Assembly: GCF_025398035.1 (NCBI RefSeq)
Contig: NZ_CP104558.1
Span: forward strand, 558,001-622,000
Direction of reading: 5' to 3'
Source of the DNA: Rossellomorea vietnamensis
GTDB taxonomy: Bacteria > Bacillota > Bacilli > Bacillales > Bacillaceae_B
Length of the DNA: 64,000 nt
This document shows, one piece after another, positions 4,385-28,418 of this stretch. Each line of letters begins with the position of its first letter. Positions within the stretch are counted from its first letter, which is position 1. Below the pieces are notes generated by a model that saw only the letters and a program-made list of their open reading frames with translations, was not told the origin of the DNA and searched no databases. A program made the translations under genes and the position numbers.

Positions 4385-4389
4385 TTATA

Positions 4390-4488
4390 GAGGGACGGAC
4401 CTCTATAAATGCTCCTGATCTGATTAAGAAACCGCATAAAACCTTAATTCTTCATGAAAATAGTATGTTAATTAGAGGTCCGTCCCTC
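4390..4488. repeat. palindromic repeat, long class, copy L1
   Basis: A 99 bp element with GAGGGACGGACCTCTA arms. It lies between the convergent SET and EcsC-like genes. Its right arm runs 21 bases into the EcsC-like reading frame and supplies that gene's last codons and TAA stop. Confidence 0.88.
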
Positions 4489-5289
4489 TTCCAGCTTCGC
4501 GAGGATTCTTCTTTTACGATAGAGCATGCGACCGGTCTCTCCAATGTCTTTGATCATGGATTTATTGATGAAGGAGCCGAAGAGGATACCGGCGATGGGA
4601 ATCATTTGAAAAAGTTTTTTCCATCCAAAGTTGTCACGAAAGCTGATCATCACTTCCCTCCACCCCTGCAGCTGGGAAAGGGTTTGCTCTCTTTTATCCT
4701 TCTTCTCGCCATTAAAATCTTCCAGTTCTTGAAGGATGGCTTGTTTCCCTACAATGTCCGATGAAACAAATTGTAGGCATTTAATGATAAAAATGCGCTC
4801 CTCTTGATCATTGGGATCATAACCGTAGCACAGGGCTATTTCTTGAAGGGTTTTAAGTGATATGCCCAGAATGAATGGGATATCGATACTTAATGTCAGA
4901 AAACCACCGATCCCTGTCGTGGCACCTTGGGTCATCGCCACCTTTTTCCTCAGATCCACAATTCCTTCACTCACTCCATCCATGTAGTTAAGGGGAAGCG
5001 CTCCTATTTCCTTTAGGGTTAAATCAGACTCTCCCGTTTTTTTGATGAATCGATTCAGGACTTCCTTCTCACTTGTGAGATGACTCCCGCCTTTTTGTAT
5101 GTAGCTTCCTATCTCATCCAATGCCTGCCCGATTTTATTATGTACCATTTGAGGGGTGATTCTATCAAGAATCATGAATGGAATCCTTCCGAGTTTCTCC
5201 CAGAACCACAATCCTTTCTGATCATCTGCCCATTCATTGACAATCTCAAGTTCTTTTAACAAGACTTCTCTCGTTTCTTCTTGATGCAT
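4468..5289 (-). CDS. EcsC family protein
   Basis: A 273-residue protein of the EcsC type: an N-terminal helical part with 'GLWFWEKLGRIPFMILDRITP', then 'GAxTGIGGFLTLSIDIPFIL' and 'SLKTLQEIALCYGYDP', which are hallmark stretches of the family. EcsC proteins are of unknown function and are named after the third gene of the B. subtilis ecs ABC operon; no ABC genes are nearby here. The central glycine-rich part could associate with the membrane. Start ATG at 5289 has AAAGGAG upstream. Odd point: the C-terminal 'EEGRTSN' and the stop codon lie inside repeat L1, so the native C-terminus has probably been replaced. Confidence 0.75.
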   Translation of the reverse strand: MHQEETREVLLKELEIVNEWADDQKGLWFWEKLGRIPFMILDRITPQMVHNKIGQALDEIGSYIQKGGSHLTSEKEVLNRFIKKTGESDLTLKEIGALPLNYMDGVSEGIVDLRKKVAMTQGATTGIGGFLTLSIDIPFILGISLKTLQEIALCYGYDPNDQEERIFIIKCLQFVSSDIVGKQAILQELEDFNGEKKDKREQTLSQLQGWREVMISFRDNFGWKKLFQMIPIAGILFGSFINKSMIKDIGETGRMLYRKRRILAKLEEGRTSN

Positions 5290-18586: not shown

Positions 18587-19456
18587 TTAATTCGGTTCCA
18601 CATGAACATGCACATCATACACCTCATGCTTATTCATCAATTCTTCTTCTACCTCGCTTGAAATATCATGTGCCTGTTTTATATCGAGGGTTGACCTCAC
18701 CAGAATCACTACATCCACGACAGTGTTGTTTCCATAATTTCTTGCCCGAATATCTTTTACACCTTTAACCCCAGGGAGATCGAGGACGGTCTTTTCGTAA
18801 GATTCTATAAGCTCTTCATCAAATCCGTCCGTTAAGTAATGGGAAGCTTCTATAAAAATGCCCCACGCGGTTTTACAGATGAGAAGGCCGACAATGACTG
18901 CCGTGAGGGGATCCAACCAGGGCAAATAAAATTGAGCACCAAGGATACCGATCACCGTGCCGATGCTTACCCATGCATCTGAGAGATTATCTTTTGCTGT
19001 AGCCATAAGTGATTGACTATTAATTTTCTGTGCTAATTTTTTGTTGTATCTATAGACAAGGTACATGACGATTGCAGCCCCAATACCAGTCCATGCGGAA
19101 ATGAGATCCGGTGCCTGGGTTTTTCCGTCAAATACAGATTGGATCGCATTGTATAGCACCTGTATCCCCACTACCATCATTATAAAGGATGCCAGTAAAG
19201 AGGCTACACTTTCCGCTTTCCAATGCCCATAAGGATGATCTTGATCGGCTGGCTTCCTTGAATACCTTAAGCCGATAAGTACTGCAACGGAAGCCACGAT
19301 ATCCGTGGCATTGTTCAAGCCGTCTGCACGTAATGCCTCCGATTCGGCTGTTGTTCCAATGAGGAATTTAATAATTGATAACAGTATATAGGCGATAATG
19401 CTTATCAGTGCACCACGCTCACCCAATTTTAACTGATCATATTTTTCTTGGTTCAC
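18587..19456 (-). CDS. cation diffusion facilitator, MneP/YeaB-like
   Basis: A 289-residue CDF antiporter exporting divalent cations. Six membrane helices occupy residues 15-205; the metal site is in 'ADGLNNATDIVAS' (helix 2) and 'KDNLSDAWVS' (helix 5). The second has the DxxxD spacing seen in manganese exporters, while zinc exporters have HxxxD. The C-terminal ferredoxin-like domain ends in 'VYDVHVHVEP'. Length fits B. subtilis MneP (YeaB). GTG at 19456 is preferred over an ATG six codons upstream, since GGAGG lies nine bases before the GTG. Manganese export would suit the nearby Mn riboswitch unit, but this is inference. Confidence 0.78.
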   Translation of the reverse strand: MNQEKYDQLKLGERGALISIIAYILLSIIKFLIGTTAESEALRADGLNNATDIVASVAVLIGLRYSRKPADQDHPYGHWKAESVASLLASFIMMVVGIQVLYNAIQSVFDGKTQAPDLISAWTGIGAAIVMYLVYRYNKKLAQKINSQSLMATAKDNLSDAWVSIGTVIGILGAQFYLPWLDPLTAVIVGLLICKTAWGIFIEASHYLTDGFDEELIESYEKTVLDLPGVKGVKDIRARNYGNNTVVDVVILVRSTLDIKQAHDISSEVEEELMNKHEVYDVHVHVEPN

Positions 19457-19598
19457 GATCCTATTCCTCCACATTTGATATGTACCTGAATATCATAGCA
19501 ACCCCTTCCCATGTGGGTCTATAGCAACCTTCTTTAGTGAAGCTATCTTAATATGAAGAGGTGAACAATGTTTCCGGTAGCAAACTTTTATGAAGGCA

Positions 19599-19626
19599 TA
19601 AAAAATAGGACTGTGGGTACAGTCCT
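19599..19626 (-). terminator. intrinsic terminator after the cloverleaf
   Basis: Perfect 8 bp stem AGGACTGT (19607-19614) / ACAGTCCT (19619-19626) with loop GGGT. On the minus strand it is followed by six Ts, so it ends a transcript coming from the lipoprotein gene through the cloverleaf region. Confidence 0.82.
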
Positions 19627-19635
19627 GTGTATAAT

Positions 19636-19776
19636 GATTTTTGACTCATTTAGCCCGTGTAGAAAGGCAGCCTGAATCAAATGCATTTGATTCAGGCTGC
19701 CTTTCTACACGAGCTACTTTTCAGCTTTGCTGAAAAGCGGGCGAAACTTTAGTTTCGCCCGAATGAGTCAAAAATC
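19636..19776. repeat. cloverleaf of nested inverted repeats (four-way junction)
   Basis: A 141 bp structure. Outer arms GATTTTTGACTCATT (19636-19650) and its exact complement (19762-19776) enclose three back-to-back palindromes: a perfect 56-base palindrome at 19656-19711 (28 bp arms, extending to 19651-19716 with one mismatch), CTTTTCAGC / GCTGAAAAG at 19717-19737, and GGGCGAAACT / AGTTTCGCCC at 19739-19760. Only single bases separate them. It lies 46 bases beyond the lipoprotein stop and ten before a terminator, so it would be its 3' untranslated region. Family unknown. Confidence 0.88.
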
Positions 19777-19822: not shown

Positions 19823-20374
19823 TTAATCTACAATATCAGCTGAAAAACTAGGCTTCGTCAATCCAGCTTCTTCATAAACAGCAGCCATTTTTTCTTCAAA
19901 TGAAGCAAATTGTTCATCAGATTCTGTGTATTCTGCGTTTGCTTCGTCTGAAAGATTTGCAGCTCTGGTTTCATATGATTTTGCAAGATCGTCCAATGCC
20001 CCTTGGATTTCCTCTTTCTTTGAATCCAGACCAGCAGGTACTTCTAGCCCCTGAACGTCTTCAGCTACGGTTTTAGCAGCTGTTTCAGCTTCGGTTTTAA
20101 GTTTGGCAATCTCTTCTGCACTTGGTTTATCCTCTTCTTTAGCTTTTGCGGATTCAAACGTGTAAATAGCTGAATCATTGGCATTCACTGTGTTGATGAC
20201 TTCTTTTTGAAAGTCTAATAGAGCGGATTTCATTTCCATCTCGTCCGATTTTGCACTTTCTTCAGTTGCTTCAGTGTTTGTCTCTTTTTCCTCTGTACTC
20301 CCCTCATCACTACTGCATGCAGCAATAAATAAACTCATAGACAGCAAGAAAAAGGGTAACATCAATTTTTTCAT
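19823..20374 (-). CDS. helical lipoprotein of unknown function
   Basis: A 183-residue secreted lipoprotein: signal peptide 'MKKLMLPFFLLSMSLFIAAC' with lipobox IAAC and Cys20 as the lipid site, a low-complexity Ser/Glu/Thr spacer (22-45), then an all-helical acidic domain with 'ALLDFQKEVINTVNANDSAIYTFE' and 'LEVPAGLDSKKEEIQGALDDLAKSYE'. The pattern resembles other helical Bacillus lipoproteins such as YkyA, but without firm identity. ATG at 20374 has GGGAGG upstream; an ATG seven codons earlier lacks one. The transcript likely runs into the cloverleaf structure and terminator at 19599. Confidence 0.75.
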   Translation of the reverse strand: MKKLMLPFFLLSMSLFIAACSSDEGSTEEKETNTEATEESAKSDEMEMKSALLDFQKEVINTVNANDSAIYTFESAKAKEEDKPSAEEIAKLKTEAETAAKTVAEDVQGLEVPAGLDSKKEEIQGALDDLAKSYETRAANLSDEANAEYTESDEQFASFEEKMAAVYEEAGLTKPSFSADIVD

Positions 20375-20611
20375 CTGTAATTCCTCCCCATTCATTCGTT
20401 CCTACAATTACATATATTACCTTATCACTTAAAATTTGTAAACAAATGGATATCATTTAGTATTATTTGTAACTTTTTAATAGGTAGACATGCTGATTTC
20501 CGTACTTTGACGTTAGCCATTAACACGTGGGGCTTCTGTTGCTTAAATGTGTATGAAATTCAGTGATTTGGAAACGATGAATAATGACTTTTGCAAAAGG
20601 AGGTGCCTTAT

Positions 20612-20695
20612 TTGGTAACGAAAGAATGTCCTTGTGACCGCTGTACGTGTAAAACGAAAAAAGAATGTGATTGTCCCTGCTGCTGTGAAAAATAA
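20612..20695 (+). CDS. 27-residue Cys-rich peptide, metallothionein-like
   Basis: A tiny gene: TTG start at 20612 seven bases after a full AAAGGAGGTG site, 27 codons, TAA, and a terminator five bases later. The product has nine Cys in 27 residues (positions 6, 8, 11, 13, 19, 21, 23, 24, 25) as CxC, CxxC and CxCCC clusters, with Lys and Asp/Glu between. The composition is that of a small metallothionein or metal-binding peptide. No signal sequence. It is isolated between two minus-strand genes. No known family recognised; a disulfide-rich peptide is less likely without export. Confidence 0.65.
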   Translation: MVTKECPCDRCTCKTKKECDCPCCCEK

Positions 20696-28216: not shown

Positions 28217-28283
28217 GACCAATCCCCTTCCATAAATATACATATCCAATCTCCTATACCCGAAAAAATAATACTTAAACCTT

Positions 28284-28346
28284 GAGGGACGGACCTCAAA
28301 GAGGATAGATGAAATCTTTCCTACTATCTTTCGAGGTCCGTCCCTC
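28284..28346. repeat. palindromic repeat, short class, copy S3
   Basis: A 63 bp element with GAGGGACGGACCTC arms; beyond the arms AAAGA and TCTTT pair in slipped register. It lies between two divergent starts, directly before a -10 box (TATAAT at 28379). Confidence 0.9.
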
Positions 28347-28418
28347 TGGATTTTTATAGACACCAAAAAAAATATGGCTATAATTAAGTGTAATATGATC
28401 TTGGGAGGTGAAGGACCA

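What the first reader, a model, noticed from the sequence alone, without database searches (positions are those of the whole stretch)
19636..19776. Cloverleaf-like four-way junction made only of inverted repeats
A 15 bp perfect outer stem encloses three palindromes placed back-to-back, the first being a perfect 56-base palindrome. Only single unpaired bases separate the stems, so RNA or single-stranded DNA could fold into a four-way junction, like an oversized tRNA. It lies in the presumed 3' UTR of a lipoprotein gene, ten bases before its terminator. Long perfect palindromes tend to be lost in bacteria, so its presence suggests recent arrival or selection. I know of no named family with this shape.
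Basis: partly seen in the sequence, partly recalled or inferred. Interest (0 to 1): 0.75.

Follow-up and report, generated by a model that had tools for sequence, protein, structure and literature searches.

The report
Flipping DNA cloverleaf repeats in Bacillales
A 141-base stretch that can fold into a cloverleaf is one copy of a dispersed repeat in Bacillus relatives whose letters change in matched pairs and which sometimes flips end-to-end in place, which points to a mobile DNA structure and not to an isolated oddity or an ordinary RNA.

Summary
Window 19636-19776 is a 15-bp outer stem around three palindromes (66, 21, 24 nt). It is not isolated: a covariance model finds it in 30 of 36 genomes of the genus (Rossellomorea; five copies here) and in 69 of 397 sampled genomes of the order, 19 of 135 genera. 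Size and pairing are held while sequence drifts.

The evidence favours DNA over RNA. G-U pairs are 1.1% of predicted pairs (shuffles 11.9%). Paired changes are mostly transversions (47 of 78). There is no strand bias towards genes. At 3 of 11 shared sites the whole cassette lies inverted between collinear flanks. Arm homogenisation plus spacer inversion is the published signature of template switching.

In Alkalihalobacillus macyae and some other species the cloverleaf is the interior of a MITE with 8-bp target duplications (perfect in 13 of 19). Rossellomorea copies are vertically inherited, without convincing outer repeats. Outer stem, arms B and C evolve at 0.3-0.4 of the flank rate, so something may read them. 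No Rfam family, no paper found. A new variant of the dispersed palindromic-repeat kind; cellular role open.

The parts
19636..19650 (+). outer stem, left arm GATTTTTGACTCATT
   Evidence: conserved in the genus as GATTTTTGRCTCATT and variants
19651..19716 (+). arm A, long palindrome; sequence free, pairing and length held (27-31 bp in 85 of 98 copies with a three-arm fold)
19717..19737 (+). arm B, CTTTTCAGC-TTT-GCTGAAAAG, 9-bp hairpin with 3-nt loop, sequence conserved
19738..19761 (+). arm C, CGGGCGAAAC-TTTA-GTTTCGCCCG, 10-bp hairpin
19762..19776 (+). outer stem, right arm AATGAGTCAAAAATC
19607..19626 (-). intrinsic terminator hairpin of the lipoprotein gene, beyond the element; also present at the six empty sites aligned
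19823..20395 (-). flanking gene, lipoprotein-like 190 aa (signal and cysteine box read by eye; no Pfam match)
18587..19474 (-). flanking gene, cation efflux protein (PF01545)

Best explanation
The stretch is one copy of a non-autonomous, dispersed DNA repeat of Bacillales that folds, as single-stranded or extruded DNA, into a cloverleaf with a four-way junction. SHOWN: it is a family with fixed size and architecture and free arm-A sequence; arms change in matched pairs; the whole cassette lies inverted in place at three sites; in some lineages it is the interior of a MITE with terminal inverted repeats and 8-bp target duplications. INFERRED: the palindromes fold in vivo at the replication fork; polymerase switches template between the arms, copying a mutation in one arm into the other and at times inverting the segment between the outer stems; a transposase acting in trans on the outer repeats spread it in lineages such as Alkalihalobacillus macyae. 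In Rossellomorea the copies seem sessile and vertically inherited. The slower change of outer stem, arm B and arm C suggests that some protein (a transposition or junction-binding factor) recognises them; that step is the weakest.
For: Family. Structure: 95.1% of 1499 cells paired (shuffles 77.0%), 260 cells with both-sided change (shuffles 74.8), covariation 0.467 against at most 0.095 when slid. Not RNA-like: G-U 1.1% of predicted pairs in 90 distinct copies on the A-B-C strand, 11.9% in their shuffles, 2.0% on the other strand; in 25 disjoint closest ortholog pairs 78 both-sided Watson-Crick changes, 47 transversion-type and 31 transition-type, against 46 one-sided; window copy against its nearest relative: two base differences that together swap one pair. 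In-place inversion at 3 of 11 multi-locus site groups, flanks collinear up to the stem, no abutting direct duplication in eight copies checked. No strand bias: 29 with, 33 against, 31 divergent, 7 convergent, 3 undetermined of 103. MITE vehicle: of 19 distinct elements with both ends, 13 have perfect 8-bp duplications and 17 at most one mismatch; one of the 19 carries other cargo. Mechanism precedent: abstract of PMC8604942.
Against: No transposase was matched to the TIR: IS1182 transposase gave no match in A. macyae, and the IS1182 copies of this genome that were read have other ends; other families were not searched. No convincing outer TIR at the Rossellomorea copies (L007 and L113 gave only A/T-rich matches, z 4-5, not shared at that strength by their sister copies) and no clean target duplication at the window site. 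One-sided changes exist (46), and in the nine closest pairs they equal the both-sided ones (8 and 8), so double changes are not strictly simultaneous. Loop flips in arms B and C, expected from template switching, are not in clear excess: 5 of 72 differing comparisons for B (8.6% expected from the pool), 3 of 80 for C (1.8% expected). Two A. macyae MITEs keep only stem and arm C and are still bounded by duplications (one perfect, one with a mismatch), so arms A and B seem unnecessary for that transposition.
Confidence: 0.6

Rival explanations
1. Host-beneficial DNA structure: the cloverleaf is kept because a cellular factor (a junction- or hairpin-binding protein, or supercoiling near promoters) uses it; selection, not template switching, keeps the arms paired.
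For: Outer stem, B and C evolve at 0.29, 0.36 and 0.43 of the rate of the adjoining 60 bp; arm sizes are held across the genera sampled; one site group, with tig and clpX beside it where annotated, holds the element in 12 loci.
Against: The genes flanking the five copies of this genome share no evident theme; 6 of 36 genomes of the genus gave no match; decayed and deleted copies exist; rates are biased low because detection requires similarity to the model.
Confidence: 0.25
2. Structured RNA: a 3'-UTR stabiliser, processing site or small RNA.
For: Very stable RNA fold; the window copy lies upstream of the lipoprotein terminator; both strands fold alike, so orientation freedom does not fully exclude it, and an RNA needed from both strands would also avoid G-U.
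Against: G-U pairs nearly absent; transversion-type compensation dominates; of 36 site groups with an inward gene end, 11 have the terminator before the element, 6 after it, 19 none detected; 31 of 103 copies lie between divergent ORFs; the cassette inverts; no Rfam family at gathering score.
Confidence: 0.1
3. Mere relics: dead MITE copies, paired only because template switching is frequent; no recognition of any arm.
For: MITE form in A. macyae and relatives; deletion forms and decay.
Against: Recognisable stem, B and C sequence in several genera and slower change than flanks, though ascertainment may contribute.
Confidence: 0.05

Closest known systems
MITEs of bacteria, including bcr repeats of the Bacillus cereus group (bcr1)
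   Same: short, non-coding, dispersed, mostly intergenic, foldable; in A. macyae and relatives TIR and 8-bp duplications
   Different: three palindromic arms on a stem, covarying arm A, in-place inversion; found in 19 sampled genera, whereas the first bcr element is described as restricted to the B. cereus group (passages of PMC6542083). bcr sequences were not compared here.
REP/REPIN elements
   Same: dispersed extragenic palindromes thought to move with a trans-acting enzyme (search listings only)
   Different: REPs are described as 20-40 bp palindromes (abstract start of PMC3733652); this is a 141-bp four-way form. RAYT genes were not searched.
ERIC
   Same: about 127-bp intergenic mobile repeat (abstract start of PMC2759123)
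   Different: one imperfect hairpin (recalled); the function reported for ERIC acts through RNA and depends on orientation (passage of PMC2229807)
Double-hairpin elements of fungal mitochondrial DNA (recalled; one search of the library, did not bring them up)
   Same: mobile hairpin DNA with free sequence and kept pairing (recalled)
   Different: two hairpins, organelle, no outer stem (recalled)
Inverted-repeat template switching (PMC8604942, abstract)
   Same: arm homogenisation and spacer inversion, the two marks seen here
   Different: described there in yeast genes, not in a repeat family

Membership tests
MITE (family as a whole) | short, no coding capacity | tested here: met
   141-bp core, about 195-bp MITE; 80 of 103 copies overlap no ORF kept by the script, 23 do, 20 of these with ORFs of at most 103 aa
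MITE (family as a whole) | terminal inverted repeats and target duplication | tested here: met
   A. macyae and other species: TIR GGCTATGTTA or close variants, 8-bp duplication perfect in 13 of 19
MITE (window copy) | TIR and target duplication at this copy | tested here: inconclusive
   no convincing outer TIR, no clean duplication against empty relatives; the 15-bp outer stem could itself be a TIR
MITE | ends shared with an autonomous element | tested here: inconclusive
   only IS1182 was tested: no match in G131, other ends in G000; other transposase families not searched
Structured non-coding RNA | covariation with G-U intermediates on one strand | tested here: not met
Structured non-coding RNA | match to a described RNA family | tested here: not met
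   0 of 4227 families at gathering score; matches all lie below the families' cut-offs
Structured non-coding RNA | consistent strand and transcription | tested here: not met
   strand and terminator position vary; expression itself not testable here
REP/REPIN | associated RAYT transposase | not tested
   no search made
Integron attC-like folded site | array of cassettes with an integrase | not tested
   copies are scattered; integrase not searched

The most novel reading that the evidence does not exclude
A DNA element selected as folded DNA: a built-in four-way junction, a mimic of a Holliday junction, whose stem and two short arms are read by a cellular or transposition protein while the long arm needs only pairing and length, and which flips orientation in place through its own stem.
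Probability: 0.2. Interest if true: 0.85.

Novelty: new variant of a known kind. Interest (0 to 1): 0.62.

Why it matters
The family gives a natural record of hairpin folding of chromosomal DNA: arms corrected to match and cassettes inverted, in about a hundred copies read here at traceable sites. It makes the question of how often long palindromes fold and are repaired at bacterial replication forks testable in ordinary laboratory bacilli, and it warns that strong covariation alone does not prove an RNA: by covariation alone this would pass as a new RNA family.

Tried and rejected
IS1182 as mobiliser: a weak plasmid match of the TIR (E = 2) beside a broken IS1182-like transposase led to a search of six genomes: no match in G131, G079 or G159; the five copies of G000 whose ends were read have different ends. 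Rejected; other transposase families were not tried.

Carriage on phages, plasmids or viral contigs: no match with the window element, with an A. macyae MITE, or with a B-C arm pattern in viral contigs.

Loop flipping of arms B and C as proof of template switching: not enriched; one pair (L041/L047) has both flipped.

Rfam matches at a lax threshold lie below the cut-offs.

Site groups: one search also labels L082, L086, L122 and L103 'inverted', but with scores of 73-90 of 1600, that is, flanks that do not align; I do not count them. Two members that joined a group through a similar gene only (L064, L103) were dropped; they are still. At the window site 30 loci were examined and 15 aligned; the other 15 lacked a match to one or both flanking pieces.

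Literature: no paper found with cloverleaf + miniature inverted-repeat + Bacillus, Rossellomorea + repeat + MITE or Alkalihalobacillus + miniature inverted-repeat; in the listings of the broader searches I saw no description of this element. Subscription papers are mostly absent from that library. Families Bhal-1 and Bant-1 of PMC2267715 (passages) were not compared.

Full report
WHAT IS THERE. Bases 19636-19776 form a 15-bp outer stem that encloses arm A (66 nt), arm B (21 nt) and arm C (24 nt) with no unpaired base at the junction in the predicted fold. Both strands fold alike as DNA.

IT IS A FAMILY. BLAST with the 141 bases found relatives in 25 of 36 genomes of the genus, own genome included. 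Twenty-four copies were aligned and a covariance model was built. The model finds 30 of 36 genomes (27 of 32 of good quality) at E 0.01, with 5 copies in this genome at C1 389754, 577636, 1107217, 2458564 and 4223765 (each copy is matched on both strands). In the order, 69 of 397 sampled genomes and 19 of 135 genera have it at E 1e-5. A class-wide draw gave 6 of 398, all six in the same order; how many of those 398 lay outside the order is not shown. Titles from an exact-pattern scan with 49 stretches name Rossellomorea, Alkalihalobacillus macyae, Pseudalkalibacillus hwajinpoensis, Bacillus species and one unnamed MAG. G131 has 88 + 82 near-matches to the outer-stem arm against 10 + 12 for the control pattern, so tens of copies (inference). 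No match was found in phage or plasmid records, nor of a B-C arm pattern in viral contigs.

HOW IT EVOLVES. I extracted 103 copies: 100 from the matches (195 matches, most of the remainder being the opposite strand of the same copies; that call was given 100 of the 181 loci then held), plus L007-L009. 101 are distinct (three of G136 are identical) and 92 are 138-144 nt long. 39 of 63 pairs have both-sided changes; on all five measures no shuffle of 500 reaches the observed value, and every slid control is lower (the structure was derived from the same alignment, and related sequences inflate such counts). Two marks do not fit an RNA. G-U pairs make up 63 of 5555 predicted pairs (1.1%) on the A-B-C strand and 2.0% on the other, against 11.9% in dinucleotide shuffles. 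In 25 disjoint closest ortholog pairs, 78 pairs swapped one Watson-Crick pair for another, 47 by transversion and 31 by transition, against 28 broken and 18 G-U one-sided changes and 6 other double changes. In the nine closest pairs both-sided and one-sided changes are equal (8 and 8), so the swaps are fast but not strictly simultaneous.

IT FLIPS IN PLACE. At 3 of 11 site groups with two or more loci, members carry the cassette in opposite order (A-B-C or C'-B'-A') between flanks that stay collinear up to the outer stem: the ABC-F/DUF1232 site (L033, L089, L120 against L015, L036, L071, L080, L112, L119), L066 against L125, and L012 against L023. No direct duplication abuts the eight copies checked, so inversion fits better than independent insertion. 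Four further 'inverted' labels rest on flanks that do not align and are not counted. Arm homogenisation with spacer inversion is described for template switching between inverted repeats (abstract of PMC8604942). The expected flips of the small loops are not in excess.

HOW IT MOVES. In A. macyae and other species the cloverleaf sits inside a MITE of about 195 bp with ends GGCTATGTTA / TAACATAGCC or close variants; G131 has 57 end matches, a few overlapping, against 0 for the reversed control pattern. Of 19 distinct elements with both ends, 13 have perfect 8-bp duplications and 17 have at most one mismatch. One of the 19 (L153, 235 bp) has other cargo; L216 and L235 keep only stem and arm C, L239 has lost arms too, and three others are 142-157 bp. 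In Bacillus sp. CECT 9360 three identical cores lie between a different repeat, CTATATAAGTTGAA. In Rossellomorea no convincing outer repeat was found. At the window site, of 15 loci that could be aligned, the element is present in 7 (own genome included, one with an N gap in arm A), decayed in G008, a remnant in G005 and absent in 6. The vehicle therefore varies and the core persists.

WHERE IT SITS. By simple ORF calls, 29 copies are tandem with the A-B-C strand, 33 tandem against it, 31 divergent, 7 convergent, 3 undetermined; 23 of 103 overlap some ORF, 20 of them ORFs of at most 103 aa, L092 one of 148 aa, and L074 and L079 the first bases of a 317-aa ORF. Among 36 site groups with an inward gene end, a terminator was found before the element in 11, after it in 6 (the window site among them) and in neither place in 19. 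The five sites of this genome are ABC-F|DUF1232, cation efflux|lipoprotein, nitronate monooxygenase|Orn/Lys/Arg decarboxylase, MFS|carboxyltransferase, tig|clpX; no common theme.

CONSTRAINT. Per base, against the adjoining 60 bp: outer stem 0.29 (0.16-0.46), B 0.36 (0.24-0.50), C 0.43 (0.28-0.61), A 0.70 (0.55-0.88) (25 pairs). Part of this may be ascertainment, because decayed copies score poorly with the model. Taken at face value, stem, B and C are read by something and A needs mainly to pair.

VERDICT. A widespread, DNA-level, flip-capable cloverleaf repeat, mobile as a MITE interior in some lineages. Shown: family, pairing, inversion, MITE carriage. Inferred: in vivo folding, template switching, recognition of stem, B and C. 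Unknown: the transposase and any benefit to the host.

Noticed in passing
window 20612-20695 (+): A 27-residue ORF from TTG with nine cysteines (LVTKECPCDRCTCKTKKECDCPCCCEK), preceded by aaaggaggtg; metallothionein-like by eye, next to the lipoprotein gene.
   Followed up: no
window 4389-4489, 28277-28353 and other places: AGGGACGGACCT occurs 7 times on + and 10 times on - in the window, several as facing pairs: another dispersed inverted repeat.
   Followed up: partly
G000 (L247, L249, L252, L254, L256 and others): An IS1182-family element: 11 matches in this genome, ten of nearly equal score and one divergent; in the five copies read, the nearest 6-10 bases on the left mirror those on the right, as if it inserts into hairpin centres.
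   Followed up: partly
L153:2461-2695: A 235-bp MITE with the same kind of ends (GGCTCTGTTAAA) and a perfect 8-bp duplication, but a different inverted-repeat-rich interior.
   Followed up: no
L013, L119, L133: N runs in or beside arm A of draft assemblies: long palindromes break short-read assembly, so some short forms may be artefacts.
   Followed up: no
L099, beside the copy at 2501-2641: The flank contains what looks like the end of a second, partial cloverleaf (CACACGAATGAGTCAAAAATC).
   Followed up: no
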